Origin: an uncultured Butyrivibrio sp. | GTDB lineage: Bacteria > Bacillota > Clostridia > Lachnospirales > Lachnospiraceae | Assembly (NCBI GenBank): GCA_947167765.1 | Contig: CAMVJI010000001.1 | Span: forward strand, 1 to 64,000 | Direction: 5' to 3' | DNA length: 64,000 nt | In this document: in pieces, positions 2,168 to 8,367 of the stretch | Numbering within the stretch: the first letter of the stretch is position 1 | Layout: every line of letters starts with the position of its first letter | Notes under the pieces: generated by a model | Databases searched by the model: none | Told to the model about the DNA's origin: nothing | What the model saw: the letters and a program-made list of their open reading frames with translations, nothing else | Position numbers and translations under genes: made by a program

Positions 2168-4528
2168 TTGAAAGAGATAACCATGAATCTTGGAACAAAA
2201 GCAGAAAATATTACAAGGTTAAAAGAAATTCTTAGAAATGCAAAAACATTAGATGGTTTTGTGTTTACATATGAGGAATGGATTGAAAATAGCGACAATT
2301 GTTGGAATCAGTCAAAATTGCTAGGATCAAATCTAATAGTTCGTAGTAGCTGTTTGGCAGAGGACAGATATGACATGTCAAATGCAGGAAAATATATTTC
2401 GCTCCTAAACATTAATACGAGGGATCGATTTTATGATGCTGTAAATCAAGTGTTTTGTAGTTATACATTGGATGAACGACCTATTGATATTAGAGACCAA
2501 ATTCTCGTTCAACCTATGTTAGAAAATGTAGCTGTATGTGGCGTTGCATTCACGCTAGATCCTAATAATGGAGGAAATTATTATGTAATTAATTATGATT
2601 ATTCTGGAGCAACTGACAGAATAACATCTGGTTCGGGAAAGGACAACCTTTTATTTTATCAGTTTAAATATTCTGATGATGTAATGGCTAATTCGTGTGC
2701 AGAAGGATTCCTTTTGAAACTCATTGCTACACTACGAGAGTTAGAGGAAGTATTTGAAAAGAACAACCTGGATGTTGAGTTTGCGGTTGATTCTAAAGGT
2801 GAATTGTATATTTTTCAGGTAAGGGAACTATGCATGAAAATTCCGCATGCTGATGTTAATATACAGACTGATGTCCTTAAGGGAATCCACCAGAAACTGA
2901 AAGAGGGACAGAAAAAGAAGCCGTTTTTATGCGGGGATAGGGCCATCTATAGTGTTATGACGGATTGGAACCCGGCAGAAATGATTGGATTGTATCCCAA
3001 AGCACTAGCTTTGTCATTATATAGAGAGATAATCACAGACAGCGTTTGGGCATATCAAAGAGATAACTATGGCTACAGGAATCTAAGAAGTTTTCCTCTT
3101 TTGGTTGATTTCGGTGGCATCCCGTACATAGATGTCCGTGTGAGTTTCAACTCGTTTGTGCCTGCGGGATTAGACGAGAAAATCAGCGAAAAATTGGTAA
3201 ATTATTATCTTAATAGATTGGTAGAACATCCGAGCGAGCATGACAAAGCGGAATTCAATATTGTGTTCTCTTGCTATACTTTCGATTTGCCTGAACGAAT
3301 CCTAATCCTAAAAGATTATGGTTTTTCTAGTGATGAGATTGAGAAGATTACGGATGCATTAAGAAATGTAACTAATCAGATTATTGATCACGAGAAAGGG
3401 TTATGGAGAAAGGATTACGCAAAAATTGAAAAATTGAGAGATCGTTACGATGAAATCATCACAAGTGATCTGTCAGATGTCGAGAAGACCTATTGGCTCT
3501 TAGAGGATTGTAAGAGATATGGGACGTTACCATTTGCGGGACTTGCGAGAGGAGCATTTGTTGCTGTACAACTACTTAAATCCATGATCAATGTGGGCGT
3601 ACTGTCGCAGAACGATTATGATGCATTCATGAACGACGTTAATTCTGTCAGTTCCCAGATGAACAGTGATTTTAGGGAACTGCAGAGAGAGGCTTTCCTC
3701 GAGAAATATGGACATTTGCGACCGGGCACATATGATATTACAATACCGCGCTATGATGAGGATCCTGATCGATATTTTGATTGGAAAAATGGAACTACCG
3801 GTAAAGGCGAGAAGGAAGTAAGTAGTTTCAGGTTGTCTATGGAGCAGATGCACTTATTGCGTGAACAAGTGGTCAAAAGCGGACTTAATAATGATATACT
3901 TGAGTTGTTAGATTTTATAAAGAAGGTAATAGAAGGACGTGAGTACGGAAAATTCATTTTTACCAGAAATTTATCAAAAGCCCTTCAATTGATCGGCCAG
4001 ATGGGTGAAAAGATGGGGCTGACACGGGATGACATGGCATATATGGATGTTCATACTATCTATGAGTTATATTCATCATCAAGAGATATGGAAGCAGTCA
4101 TTAAATCATCCATACAAAAAGGGGAGGAAGATCATAGAATCAAAACATCACTTCGCCTGCCTCCTATCATTATTGAACCTGAGGAAGTGTTCTCTTTCTT
4201 TTATCCTGACTCAGAACCGAATTTTGTAACGCTCGGAAAGGTATCTGGTGGAATTGTAGATATAAAAGATGTCCGGAGGGGGGATTCTTTTGAAGGTAAG
4301 ATCTTAATGATTCCAAGTGCTGATCCTGGTTATGATTGGATTTTTTCGCATGGGGTTTCTGGATTCATCACGATGTACGGAGGAGCTAATTCTCATATGG
4401 CAATCAGAGCTGGAGAACTGGGCATACCTGCGGTAATAGGCGCAGGAGAAAAACTATATGAAAAATACAGCATGGCTAGAGCAGTTGAAATAAATGCCGG
4501 CGTCAGGCAGGTAACTATATTAAAGTAA
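2168..4528 (+). CDS. PEP-synthase/PPDK-like phosphotransferase; candidate L-glutamine kinase (Cj1418-like)
   Basis: N-terminal ATP-grasp-like PEP/pyruvate-binding region ('LIVRSSCLAED...'), C-terminal swivelling His domain 'GGANSHMAIRAGELGIPAVIGAG'; linked to Cj1415/1416/1417-like genes. TTG start at 2168 or ATG at 2183. Confidence 0.75.
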   Translation: MKEITMNLGTKAENITRLKEILRNAKTLDGFVFTYEEWIENSDNCWNQSKLLGSNLIVRSSCLAEDRYDMSNAGKYISLLNINTRDRFYDAVNQVFCSYTLDERPIDIRDQILVQPMLENVAVCGVAFTLDPNNGGNYYVINYDYSGATDRITSGSGKDNLLFYQFKYSDDVMANSCAEGFLLKLIATLRELEEVFEKNNLDVEFAVDSKGELYIFQVRELCMKIPHADVNIQTDVLKGIHQKLKEGQKKKPFLCGDRAIYSVMTDWNPAEMIGLYPKALALSLYREIITDSVWAYQRDNYGYRNLRSFPLLVDFGGIPYIDVRVSFNSFVPAGLDEKISEKLVNYYLNRLVEHPSEHDKAEFNIVFSCYTFDLPERILILKDYGFSSDEIEKITDALRNVTNQIIDHEKGLWRKDYAKIEKLRDRYDEIITSDLSDVEKTYWLLEDCKRYGTLPFAGLARGAFVAVQLLKSMINVGVLSQNDYDAFMNDVNSVSSQMNSDFRELQREAFLEKYGHLRPGTYDITIPRYDEDPDRYFDWKNGTTGKGEKEVSSFRLSMEQMHLLREQVVKSGLNNDILELLDFIKKVIEGREYGKFIFTRNLSKALQLIGQMGEKMGLTRDDMAYMDVHTIYELYSSSRDMEAVIKSSIQKGEEDHRIKTSLRLPPIIIEPEEVFSFFYPDSEPNFVTLGKVSGGIVDIKDVRRGDSFEGKILMIPSADPGYDWIFSHGVSGFITMYGGANSHMAIRAGELGIPAVIGAGEKLYEKYSMARAVEINAGVRQVTILK

Positions 4529-4551
4529 TATTATTTAAAGGAGATTAGGAA

Positions 4552-6974: not shown

Positions 6975-7582
6975 ATTCGATATTATTCACCCAACGTGTT
7001 GATATTATAGAGAGTTATGGGGAACGGAGAGATTGTGCGGATCAGAACATTTCACGATTGATTAAAATGTGTGGATATGTTCCGGTCCCGATGATAAATG
7101 ATCCGGAACTTGTTAGACCACTATCCGATGAGCTGAAACCTGTAGGCATACTGCTTACAGGTGGAAATGATCTTGGCTCATATGGAGGGAATGCGCCTGA
7201 AAGGGATATTACAGAAACTAGACTCTTAGAATATGCAGTAAAGAAAAAAATACCATTATTAGGCATTTGTCGAGGGATGCAATTTGTGGCTAATTATTAT
7301 GGAGCAAAGCTAGAAAGAGTAGAAGGGCATATTAGGAAGAATCATGCTATACATGGAGTTATAAACAGAAATTCAGTTAATAGTTTTCATGGAATGGCCG
7401 TAAAGAATATTGTTTCTCCACTTGAGGAATTGGCTCGAGCGGAAGATGGAGTTATTGAAGCGCTACAACATAAAGAAAATCTGATTGCGGGTATTATGTG
7501 GCACCCCGAGAGGGTTGAAGGTTTTTTAGAAGAGGATATTGACTTAATAAAACATTTTTATGAGGAAGGGAGATTAATATGA
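6971..7582 (+). CDS. class I glutamine-amidotransferase-like/peptidase C26 (PuuD-like); candidate gamma-glutamyl-CDP-amidate hydrolase (Cj1417-like)
   Basis: 'GILLTGGNDLGSYGG', nucleophile 'LLGICRGMQFVA', 'GIMWHPERVE'; ATGA overlap with upstream gene. Confidence 0.85.
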   Translation: MNSILFTQRVDIIESYGERRDCADQNISRLIKMCGYVPVPMINDPELVRPLSDELKPVGILLTGGNDLGSYGGNAPERDITETRLLEYAVKKKIPLLGICRGMQFVANYYGAKLERVEGHIRKNHAIHGVINRNSVNSFHGMAVKNIVSPLEELARAEDGVIEALQHKENLIAGIMWHPERVEGFLEEDIDLIKHFYEEGRLI

Positions 7583-8367
7583 AAGCAATAATCCTTGCAG
7601 CTGGCCAGGGAACAAGATTAAAAAAATACACGGAGAATTTACCCAAAGGAATGCTGTTATTTGCCGGTAAAACGATAATAGAACGGCAGATAGAGATGTA
7701 CAGAAAATGTGGGATAGATAAGATCATTATTGTAAGAGGGTATGCGGCTGATAAGATTACTTATGAAGGGGTTACATATTACAATAATGATGATTATGCC
7801 AATACAAACATGGTTGAGTCATTAATGGCGGCAAGAGAAGAGTTTACTGATGATATAATAGTAAGTTATTCGGATATATTGTTTGAAGAACACTTGCTTA
7901 AAACAATGATGAATAGTCAGTATGATTTTGCGGTTTCCGTGGATGATGAATGGAAGAAATATTGGCTATTGAGATATGGGAAAGTAGATTTTGATACTGA
8001 GAGTTTATCTATAAGCGAGGATGATAATATCACTGAACTAGGCCTTGAGAATCCTATGCTTGAGAGTATAGACGCAAGATACATTGGATTATTAAAGTTT
8101 TCTAAAGCTGGTCTGAGATACATTGAAGAAATGATGAGTAAGGCATATAAAGAGTTCGATAATAAGCCGTGGCAACAATCTGGGAAACCGGTAAAAAAAG
8201 CCTATATGACAGATCTGTTAAATGCTATTATTGAGGCTGGAAAATCTGTAAAAGCGGTTCATTTTAATAATGGATGGCTTGAATTTGATACAAATGAAGA
8301 TTATGAGAGAGCGATGGAGTGGATTAGAAAGGATATGATAAAAATAATATATAATCTATCTGAATAG
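7579..8367 (+). CDS. nucleotidyltransferase; candidate CTP:phosphoglutamine cytidylyltransferase (Cj1416-like)
   Basis: 'MKAIILAAGQGTRLKKYTENLPKGML' and 'YANTNMVESLMAA'; ATGA overlap with upstream gene. Confidence 0.85.
   Translation: MKAIILAAGQGTRLKKYTENLPKGMLLFAGKTIIERQIEMYRKCGIDKIIIVRGYAADKITYEGVTYYNNDDYANTNMVESLMAAREEFTDDIIVSYSDILFEEHLLKTMMNSQYDFAVSVDDEWKKYWLLRYGKVDFDTESLSISEDDNITELGLENPMLESIDARYIGLLKFSKAGLRYIEEMMSKAYKEFDNKPWQQSGKPVKKAYMTDLLNAIIEAGKSVKAVHFNNGWLEFDTNEDYERAMEWIRKDMIKIIYNLSE

What the first reader, a model, noticed from the sequence alone, without database searches (positions are those of the whole stretch)
2168..8367. Complete phosphoramidate (MeOPN-like) biosynthesis set in an apparent Gram-positive surface-polysaccharide locus
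Seen: a PEP-synthase-fold protein with swivelling His domain, a CysC-like kinase, a PuuD-like hydrolase and a LicC-like cytidylyltransferase are clustered; the last three overlap by 4 nt each. Established: in C. jejuni, Cj1418 (L-glutamine kinase), Cj1416 (CTP:phosphoglutamine cytidylyltransferase), Cj1417 (gamma-glutamyl-CDP-amidate hydrolase) and Cj1415 (CDP-amidate kinase) make the donor for O-methyl phosphoramidate capsule decoration. Inference: this organism decorates its wall polymer or capsule with a phosphoramidate. All four families occur together with no sulfate-assimilation or polyamine-catabolism genes, which argues against generic annotations.
Basis: partly seen in the sequence, partly recalled or inferred. 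Interest (0 to 1): 0.9.

Follow-up and report, generated by a model that had tools for sequence, protein, structure and literature searches.

The report
Phosphoramidate surface-decoration operon in Butyrivibrio
A rumen-type Gram-positive bacterium carries the complete gene set that Campylobacter uses to put a rare nitrogen-phosphorus group on its surface sugars, plus two further genes that probably methylate the group and recycle the spent carrier, and the same set turns up in many unrelated bacteria although it has been described as Campylobacter-specific.

Summary
The window (a Butyrivibrio-genus draft genome) encodes homologues of all four enzymes that make the phosphoramidate donor in Campylobacter jejuni: glutamine kinase, phosphoglutamine cytidylyltransferase, gamma-glutamyl-CDP-amidate hydrolase and CDP-amidate kinase. 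Each falls in a clade defined by co-location, not with PEP synthases, LicC, PuuD or true APS kinases. The genome shows no ATP sulfurylase. In 52 well-flanked loci from many phyla, 44 have hydrolase, cytidylyltransferase and CysC-like kinase beside the glutamine kinase; in ten, mostly acidobacterial, loci the CysC domain is fused to it. Best explanation: a methylphosphoramidate is built on 3'-phospho-CDP, transferred to the surface polymer (here perhaps by the adjacent TagF-fold protein; elsewhere often by sulfotransferase-fold proteins), and the by-product's 3'-phosphate is removed by the DHH enzyme. Donor synthesis is well supported. Methylation, transfer and recycling are inferred, and no product has been shown. 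No Campylobacter sequence could be compared directly. It is a new variant of a known pathway, far more widespread than the literature read here states.

The parts
764..2098 (+). TagF-like GT-B protein, candidate phosphoramidate (or other CDP-linked) transferase; 69 nt upstream of the glutamine kinase
   Evidence: No Pfam hit. AF2 model pLDDT 85.5; best PDB folds are TagF wall-teichoic-acid polymerase, E 7e-12, with UDP-GlcNAc 2-epimerases (same GT-B fold) close behind. Homologues carry PF04464. TagF-like genes occur in 19 of 52 well-flanked related loci, including Butyrivibrio sp. XPD2002
2168..4528 (+). L-glutamine kinase homologue (Cj1418 type); TTG start as listed, ATG at 2183 likelier
   Evidence: NF004508/PRK05849 947.7 bits, cut-off 501; swivelling-domain GGANSHMAIRA with His743 in TTG numbering, invariant in 29 homologues
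4552..5304 (+). SAM-dependent methyltransferase, candidate phosphoramidate O-methyltransferase
   Evidence: Methyltransf_11; 70-74% identical to methyltransferases in related loci; N-terminal domain of a GK fusion (P0103, 72.8% identity over 250 aa)
5518..6477 (+). DHH/DHHA1 phosphoesterase of the NrnA (oligoribonuclease/PAP phosphatase) type, candidate 3'-phosphatase for the spent 3'-phospho-CMP
   Evidence: PF01368+PF02272; best NCBIfam NrnA 96.8 bits, cut-off 350 not met; motifs HPDGD33, DTD93, DHH114, GGGGH286 intact; own clade 42-66% identical, then a drop to 39% or less
6465..6974 (+). CysC-like kinase, CDP-amidate 3'-kinase homologue (Cj1415 type)
   Evidence: APS_kinase fold; GK-locus clade, 100/100 split from APS kinases; adenine-stacking Phe positions changed, kinase core kept
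6971..7582 (+). gamma-glutamyl-CDP-amidate hydrolase homologue (Cj1417 type)
   Evidence: NF045546 134 bits, best of 21 families, cut-off 250 not met; triad C100/H178/E180 and clade-specific residues
7579..8367 (+). CTP:phosphoglutamine cytidylyltransferase homologue (Cj1416 type)
   Evidence: NTP_transf_3; best solved relative LicC; clusters with GK-locus enzymes, 70% to L135

Best explanation
The operon makes and uses a 3'-phospho-CDP-linked (O-methyl) phosphoramidate donor for a surface polymer. Steps 1-4 follow the C. jejuni chemistry. [quoted passage not shown] (2) The cytidylyltransferase (7579-8367) adds CMP from CTP. (3) The C26 hydrolase (6971-7582) removes glutamate, leaving CDP-amidate. 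(4) The CysC-like kinase (6465-6974) phosphorylates the ribose 3'-OH. (5, inferred) The methyltransferase (4552-5304) methylates the phosphoramidate. (6, inferred) A transferase moves it to the polymer: in this locus most likely the adjacent TagF-fold protein (764-2098), in many other loci a sulfotransferase-fold protein that would read the 3'-phospho-CDP group as sulfotransferases read PAPS. (7, inferred) The spent 3'-phospho-CMP is stripped of its 3'-phosphate by the DHH phosphoesterase (5518-6477), as NrnA or CysQ does for PAP. Steps 1-4 are supported by sequence, clade and context; steps 5-7 are inference; no step has been shown biochemically here.
For: Clade tests for CysC, C26 and the cytidylyltransferase and the GK-specific model. 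All 39 C26 proteins taken from GK loci across phyla have gamma-glutamyl-CDP-amidate hydrolase as the best family, the window's being the strongest. Conserved order GK-MT-C26-NTP-CysC in Lachnospiraceae, and 44 of 52 loci with all three partners. Rosetta-stone fusions: CysC-GK in ten loci and MT-GK in P0103. A CysC-like kinase in a genome without detectable ATP sulfurylase. APS-pocket residues replaced (F52 to Y, N60 to S, P85 to M, F128 to V, T147 to N) while the P-loop, DGD and R/K core are kept. CysQ-type 3'-nucleotidases sit in 8 other GK loci. The DHH clade probably shares contigs with the closest glutamine kinases: P0136/P0003 both 64278 bp and P0137/P0008 both 148462 bp. Sulfotransferase-fold partners in 33 of 52 loci, 32/46 with CysC against 1/6 without, Fisher p = 0.02. 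C. jejuni pathway from PMC11800397 and PMC6429109.
Against: No Campylobacter sequence was available, so orthology to Cj1415-1418 was not measured directly. The hydrolase is below the curated equivalog cut-off (134 against 250 bits). The DHH gene was found in none of the 80 fetched GK loci; its linkage elsewhere rests on equal contig lengths only, and homologous DHH proteins also act as nanoRNases. The transferase differs between loci and none has a tested activity; GT-B folds are generic. In C. jejuni, knockouts of Cj1419 and Cj1420 changed nothing visible (PMC11800397), so where methylation happens is open. The draft genome is 79% complete, so absence of ATP sulfurylase is not proof.
Confidence: 0.82

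Rival explanations
1. The CysC-like kinase and DHH enzyme belong to PAPS-dependent sulfation of the polysaccharide (APS kinase plus PAP phosphatase), and the other three genes serve something else.
For: The fold is APS_kinase; the DHH family includes PAP phosphatases; sulfotransferase-fold genes are frequent in related loci; cysD and cysN lie beside the Vibrio alfacsensis plasmid locus.
Against: The genome has neither CysD nor ATP sulfurylase; the kinase is in a clade apart from 22 APS kinases with the adenine pocket altered and is fused to the glutamine kinase in ten loci; no sulfotransferase-like gene was found in the window with the profiles of the two related families.
Confidence: 0.06
2. 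The donor is made, but without methylation: an unmethylated phosphoramidate is transferred, and the methyltransferase acts on a sugar.
For: Unmethylated phosphoramidate is known in LPS of Xanthomonas campestris and Shewanella (cited in PMC3907429); in C. jejuni the group also occurs without methyl (PMC9561416); a strong methyltransferase homologue (200 bits or more) was found in only 33 of 80 loci, so it is not universal.
Against: The methyltransferase is the most conserved neighbour in Lachnospiraceae (70-74% identity) although the polymers must differ between loci, and it is fused to the glutamine kinase in P0103.
Confidence: 0.2
3. The DHH protein is an ordinary NrnA-type nanoRNase or nucleotide phosphatase that sits in the operon by chance or for RNA turnover.
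For: NrnA homologues occur in nearly all genomes of the order (381 of 395); the catalytic motifs are generic.
Against: At least five other DHH-family places occur in the same genome, including a 324-aa single-protein frame on contig 306; the window copy has no relative above 36% identity among order members and a small clade of its own that seems to share contigs with glutamine kinases.
Confidence: 0.35
4. The genes encode generic relatives (PEP synthase, PuuD, LicC, CysC) without a shared pathway.
For: Automatic annotation of related loci gives just these names: PEP-utilizing enzyme, gamma-glutamyl-gamma-aminobutyrate hydrolase family, phosphocholine cytidylyltransferase family, adenylyl-sulfate kinase.
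Against: Conserved co-location in 44 of 52 loci across phyla, fusions, clade separation.
Confidence: 0.02

Closest known systems
C. jejuni O-methyl phosphoramidate (MeOPN) donor pathway, Cj1415-Cj1418
   Same: All four enzyme families in one operon beside a surface-polysaccharide locus; same predicted reactions from Gln, ATP and CTP to 3'-phospho-CDP-amidate (pathway as stated in PMC11800397).
   Different: Gram-positive host lineage; a methyltransferase and a DHH phosphoesterase lie inside the operon; no Cj1421/Cj1422-type transferase could be recognised; a TagF-fold protein sits in front. Sequence identity to the C. jejuni proteins was not measured.
MeOPN-like cluster in the Cobalt Borg extrachromosomal element (PMC12660748, 2025)
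   Same: Predicted phosphoramidate biosynthesis outside Campylobacter, in a glycoconjugate region, including a CTP:phosphoglutamine cytidylyltransferase.
   Different: Archaeal mobile element, assigned from predicted structures; not compared here.
PAPS sulfation systems (APS kinase, sulfotransferase, CysQ/NrnA PAP phosphatase)
   Same: The same logic of 3'-phosphorylated nucleotide donor, kinase of the CysC fold, 3'-nucleotidase, and in many related loci a sulfotransferase fold.
   Different: Cytidine rather than adenosine and phosphoramidate rather than sulfate; no ATP sulfurylase in the genome; kinase in a separate clade.
TagF/TarL teichoic-acid polymerases
   Same: ORF 764-2098 has the GT-B fold closest to TagF.
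   Different: Only 12-15% identity and below Pfam detection; acceptor and donor unknown.

Membership tests
C. jejuni-type phosphoramidate donor pathway | L-glutamine kinase family protein with swivelling phospho-His domain | tested here: met
   NF004508 947.7 bits over cut-off 501; His743 in GGANSHMAIRA. Membership of Cj1418 in this model is recalled, not tested.
C. jejuni-type phosphoramidate donor pathway | gamma-glutamyl-CDP-amidate hydrolase: clade and catalytic residues | tested here: met
   GK-locus clade; C100/H178/E180; clade-specific Q8, R9, N43, M176, R181; best model NF045546
C. jejuni-type phosphoramidate donor pathway | gamma-glutamyl-CDP-amidate hydrolase: curated equivalog score | tested here: not met
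   134.3 bits against 250; the window has the best score of 39 GK-locus hydrolases, so the model looks Campylobacter-tight
C. jejuni-type phosphoramidate donor pathway | CDP-amidate kinase distinct from APS kinase | tested here: met
   Tree split 100/100; below the apsK cut-off, 115 against 138.7 bits; pocket residues changed
C. jejuni-type phosphoramidate donor pathway | CTP:phosphoglutamine cytidylyltransferase | tested here: met
   Clusters with GK-locus enzymes, apart from the window's LicC-like domains; substrate not testable
C. jejuni-type phosphoramidate donor pathway | Direct sequence similarity to Cj1415-Cj1418 | not tested
   No Campylobacter sequence came into the session; the single genome-contig scan returned none in its best 80
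C. jejuni-type phosphoramidate donor pathway | MeOPN transferase of the Cj1421/Cj1422 family | not testable with these tools
   No reference sequence; candidates by context only
C. jejuni-type phosphoramidate donor pathway | CDP-amidate formed in vitro; phosphoramidate on the polymer | not testable with these tools
   Needs 31P NMR
PAPS sulfation pathway | ATP sulfurylase (CysD/CysN or Sat) in the genome | tested here: not met
   No CysD, no ATP-sulfurylase; genome 79% complete
PAPS sulfation pathway | APS kinase clade and adenine pocket | tested here: not met
PEP synthase / pyruvate phosphate dikinase | C-terminal PEP/pyruvate-binding domain and PEP-synthase model score | tested here: not met
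   Only PPDK_N and PEP-utilizers found; PEP-synthase models at most 66 bits against cut-offs of 598-1063
PuuD / gamma-glutamyl-GABA hydrolase | PuuD model score and clade | tested here: not met
   43 bits against 266; outside the PuuD-like clade
NrnA oligoribonuclease/PAP phosphatase | NrnA equivalog score | tested here: not met
   96.8 bits against 350
NrnA oligoribonuclease/PAP phosphatase | DHH and DHHA1 catalytic motifs | tested here: met
   HPDGD33, DTD93, DHH114, GGGGH286
TagF-type CDP-glycerol glycerophosphotransferase | GT-B fold and Glyphos_transf profile | tested here: inconclusive
   Fold matches TagF, but GT-B epimerases score nearly as well; no Pfam hit for the window protein; four homologues carry PF04464

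The most novel reading that the evidence does not exclude
Bacteria of many phyla run a cytidine-and-phosphoramidate parallel of the PAPS sulfation system: a 3'-phospho-CDP-(methyl)phosphoramidate donor made by glutamine kinase and a CysC-clade kinase, transferred to surface glycans by sulfotransferase-fold or TagF-fold enzymes, with 3'-phospho-CMP recycled by a dedicated DHH or CysQ-type 3'-nucleotidase. In this Butyrivibrio locus the DHH enzyme is the recycling part, a component with no counterpart described in the C. jejuni pathway papers read here.
Probability: 0.4. Interest if true: 0.82.

Novelty: new variant of a known kind. Interest (0 to 1): 0.72.

Why it matters
MeOPN is a phage receptor and affects serum resistance in C. 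jejuni. A 2022 review calls the glutamine kinase C. jejuni-specific (PMC9561416) and a 2019 review gives the modification only for Campylobacter (PMC6429109). Here 415 places in a species-representative genome collection encode a relative of the kinase, with cultured examples such as Butyrivibrio sp. XPD2002, Eubacterium sp. 14-2 and Azospirillum lipoferum 4B, so P-N bonded surface glycans are probably common in gut and rumen bacteria but hidden under generic annotation. The set also makes open questions testable: which enzyme methylates the phosphoramidate (Cj1419/Cj1420 are unassigned), what fold the transferases have, and how the 3'-phospho-CMP by-product is recycled.

Tried and rejected
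Direct comparison with Cj1415-1418: the papers reporting these enzymes are not held, and the one genome scan returned no Campylobacter among the 80 loci kept. Search for solved structures of pathway enzymes: only APS kinases, LicC, GMP synthase subunits and PEP synthase-like folds. Search for the DHH gene in related loci: none in the 80 fetched loci and none close in 395 order and 397 family genomes; only equal contig lengths of protein clusters point to linkage. Sulfotransferase-like gene in the window: not found. Poly-G/C tracts of 9 or more in the GK loci as a general signal: 25 observed against 18 expected, so no overall enrichment. Apparent absence of the hydrolase in some loci (reverse-strand ORFs in its place) is mostly an ORF-picking artefact: the six-frame search finds it in 77 of 83 loci. 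MeOPN literature outside Campylobacter: Borg paper only. No promoter, Rfam or riboswitch signal was used.
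Full report
What is in the window. The region 2168-8367 holds six, not four, genes on the + strand: a PPDK_N/PEP-utilizers protein (786 aa from TTG; 781 aa from the likelier ATG at 2183), a SAM methyltransferase, a DHH/DHHA1 phosphoesterase, a CysC-like kinase, a C26 hydrolase and a MobA/LicC-like nucleotidyltransferase. 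The gene before them (764-2098) ends 69 nt upstream. The DHH and CysC genes overlap by 13 nt, CysC/C26 and C26/NTP by 4 nt each. Downstream lie a split radical-SAM gene, a fused nucleotidyltransferase/choline-kinase-like gene, a second nucleotidyltransferase, a BCCT transporter, then glycosyltransferases, a flippase, a WecG-type transferase and a phosphoglycosyltransferase. The genome is a 2.95-Mb, 79%-complete draft. Its genus contains a genome (G404) whose glutamine-kinase contig has the same length (232,514) and match coordinates as Butyrivibrio sp. XPD2002, so the host is very probably a Butyrivibrio.

Are these really the four pathway enzymes? The first protein scores 947.7 bits on NF004508/PRK05849 (cut-off 501) and at most 66 on PEP-synthase models; the phospho-His segment GGANSHMAIRA is invariant or nearly so among 29 homologues. 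The hydrolase's best family is NCBI's gamma-glutamyl-CDP-amidate hydrolase at 134 bits, next best 54; the curated cut-off of 250 is not met. All 39 C26 proteins taken from glutamine-kinase (GK) loci in many phyla share this best family, and the window's is the highest-scoring of them. In a tree with PuuD-, TrpG- and GuaA-like proteins as outgroups it sits with the GK-locus hydrolases; the triad C100/H178/E180 is present and so are residues that mark the GK-locus clade. For the kinase, 22 APS kinases fall on one side of a 100/100 branch and 60 GK-locus kinases plus the window on the other. The kinase core is kept, but positions that are Phe in all APS kinases sampled (F52, F128) are Tyr and Val here, with N60, P85 and T147 changed as well, as in most of the GK-locus clade; that F52/F128 are the adenine-stacking residues is from general knowledge of the fold. 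The nucleotidyltransferase is 70% identical to one in another GK locus and separate from the window's two LicC-like domains. The genome has one APS_kinase-family gene over the cut-off, and it is this one; CysD and ATP sulfurylase were not found.

Is the grouping meaningful? A protein search returned 6,938 clusters with E <= 1e-20 among 8,000 scored, and a scan of species-representative genomes 415 places encoding a relative. The 80 loci kept include Lachnospiraceae, Oscillospiraceae, Selenomonadales, Acidobacteria, Alpha- and Gammaproteobacteria, Spirochaetes, Verrucomicrobia, Nitrospina and Melainabacteria. The common Lachnospiraceae order is GK-MT-C26-NTP-CysC. Of 52 loci with at least 4 kb on both sides, 50 have the hydrolase, 51 the nucleotidyltransferase, 46 the CysC-like kinase and 44 all three. 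In ten loci, mostly acidobacterial, the CysC domain is fused to the N-terminus of the glutamine kinase, and in P0103 the methyltransferase is fused to it. Within the sampled phylum the kinase is sporadic: 1 of 400 genomes and 4 of 79 in the genus, as expected of a surface-antigen cassette. Plasmid copies in Azospirillum and Vibrio carry only generic annotation.

The methyltransferase. It is 70-74% identical between the window and other Lachnospiraceae loci, higher than the glutamine kinase itself (57-60%), and is fused to it in one protein. In C. jejuni no function is assigned to Cj1419 or Cj1420 (PMC11800397). This family is therefore a good candidate for the O-methylation step; methylation of a sugar is not excluded.

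The DHH phosphoesterase. Step 4 of the C. jejuni pathway gives CDP-phosphoramidate 3'-phosphate (PMC11800397), so transfer should release 3'-phospho-CMP. NrnA-type DHH proteins remove 3'-phosphates from pAp (established knowledge). The window copy has all motifs and belongs to a small clade (42-66% identity) separated by a gap from the rest. Two clade members report longest contigs of 64,278 and 148,462 bp, exactly those of two of the glutamine kinases closest to the window's (69% and 64% identity), which suggests linkage but is indirect. Eight other GK loci have a CysQ-like 3'-nucleotidase (best model TIGR01331, 147 bits, below cut-off). I infer a recycling role at about even odds.

The transfer step. 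In 33 of 52 well-flanked loci there is a protein of a family whose C-terminal domain folds like tyrosylprotein and polyketide-synthase sulfotransferases (Foldseek E about 1e-6); the profiles of the two subfamilies hit the same 49 proteins. Their presence goes with the CysC-like kinase (32 of 46 against 1 of 6; Fisher p = 0.02), which fits an enzyme that reads a 3'-phosphonucleotide; loci are not independent, so the p-value is only indicative. The window has no such protein. It has a GT-B protein closest to TagF directly before the glutamine kinase, and TagF-like proteins occur in 19 of 52 loci, including Butyrivibrio XPD2002. Which protein transfers the group here is a guess.

What is known and what is new. 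The C. jejuni donor pathway is established (PMC11800397, PMC6429109). Unmethylated phosphoramidates are known in Xanthomonas and Shewanella LPS (cited in PMC3907429), and a 2025 paper assigns a phosphoramidate cluster to a Borg element (PMC12660748). A 2022 review calls the glutamine kinase C. jejuni-specific (PMC9561416). I found no paper in the held library that describes the pathway in Lachnospiraceae. The locus is filed as a new variant: the four donor enzymes are members by clade and context, with two extra genes and a different transferase. One membership test (curated hydrolase cut-off) failed and one (direct comparison with C. jejuni proteins) could not be run, so the claim is 'works like the MeOPN donor pathway' (0.82) rather than proven orthology.

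Noticed in passing
window 8704-8712 (genes 8464-8766 and 8756-9541): A G9 tract, the only run of seven or more G or C in the 64 kb, lies exactly at the frame break that splits a twitch-domain radical-SAM gene into two ORFs. It may be a phase-variation switch or an assembly error.
   Followed up: partly
L074:6588, L075:12589, L076:12597, L077:12681, L084:12625, L095:8501: Six of 25 poly-G/C tracts of 9 or more in related loci lie inside methyltransferase genes near the glutamine kinase, against about one expected by length (binomial p about 3e-4, post hoc). C. jejuni MeOPN genes are phase-variable by poly-G tracts too.
   Followed up: partly
window 10080-14256: Winged-helix/nucleotidyltransferase/choline-kinase fusion, second nucleotidyltransferase and BCCT transporter: looks like a phosphocholine (lic-type) decoration set beside the phosphoramidate set.
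   Followed up: no
window 32-400, - strand: Small ORF resembling an IS66-type accessory transposase protein at the edge of the cluster, consistent with mobility of the cassette (from reading only).
   Followed up: no
L202:5644-8184 (Azospirillum lipoferum 4B plasmid AZO_p6): CysC-like kinase as the C-terminal domain of an 846-aa protein annotated adenylyl-sulfate kinase, followed by MT, GK, C26, NTP and sulfotransferase-domain genes; the N-terminal ~650 aa match no Pfam family.
   Followed up: partly
L071:3123-4973, L107:2811-4637: CysN-CysC-type proteins near two GK loci (L071 confirmed by Pfam: EF-Tu-like GTPase plus APS_kinase at 230 bits; L107 by similar length and CysC score) in addition to the GK-clade CysC of L071, so some loci may both sulfate and phosphoramidate.
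   Followed up: no
L101:10159: G15 tract at the start of the glutamine-kinase frame in a Treponema MAG.
   Followed up: no
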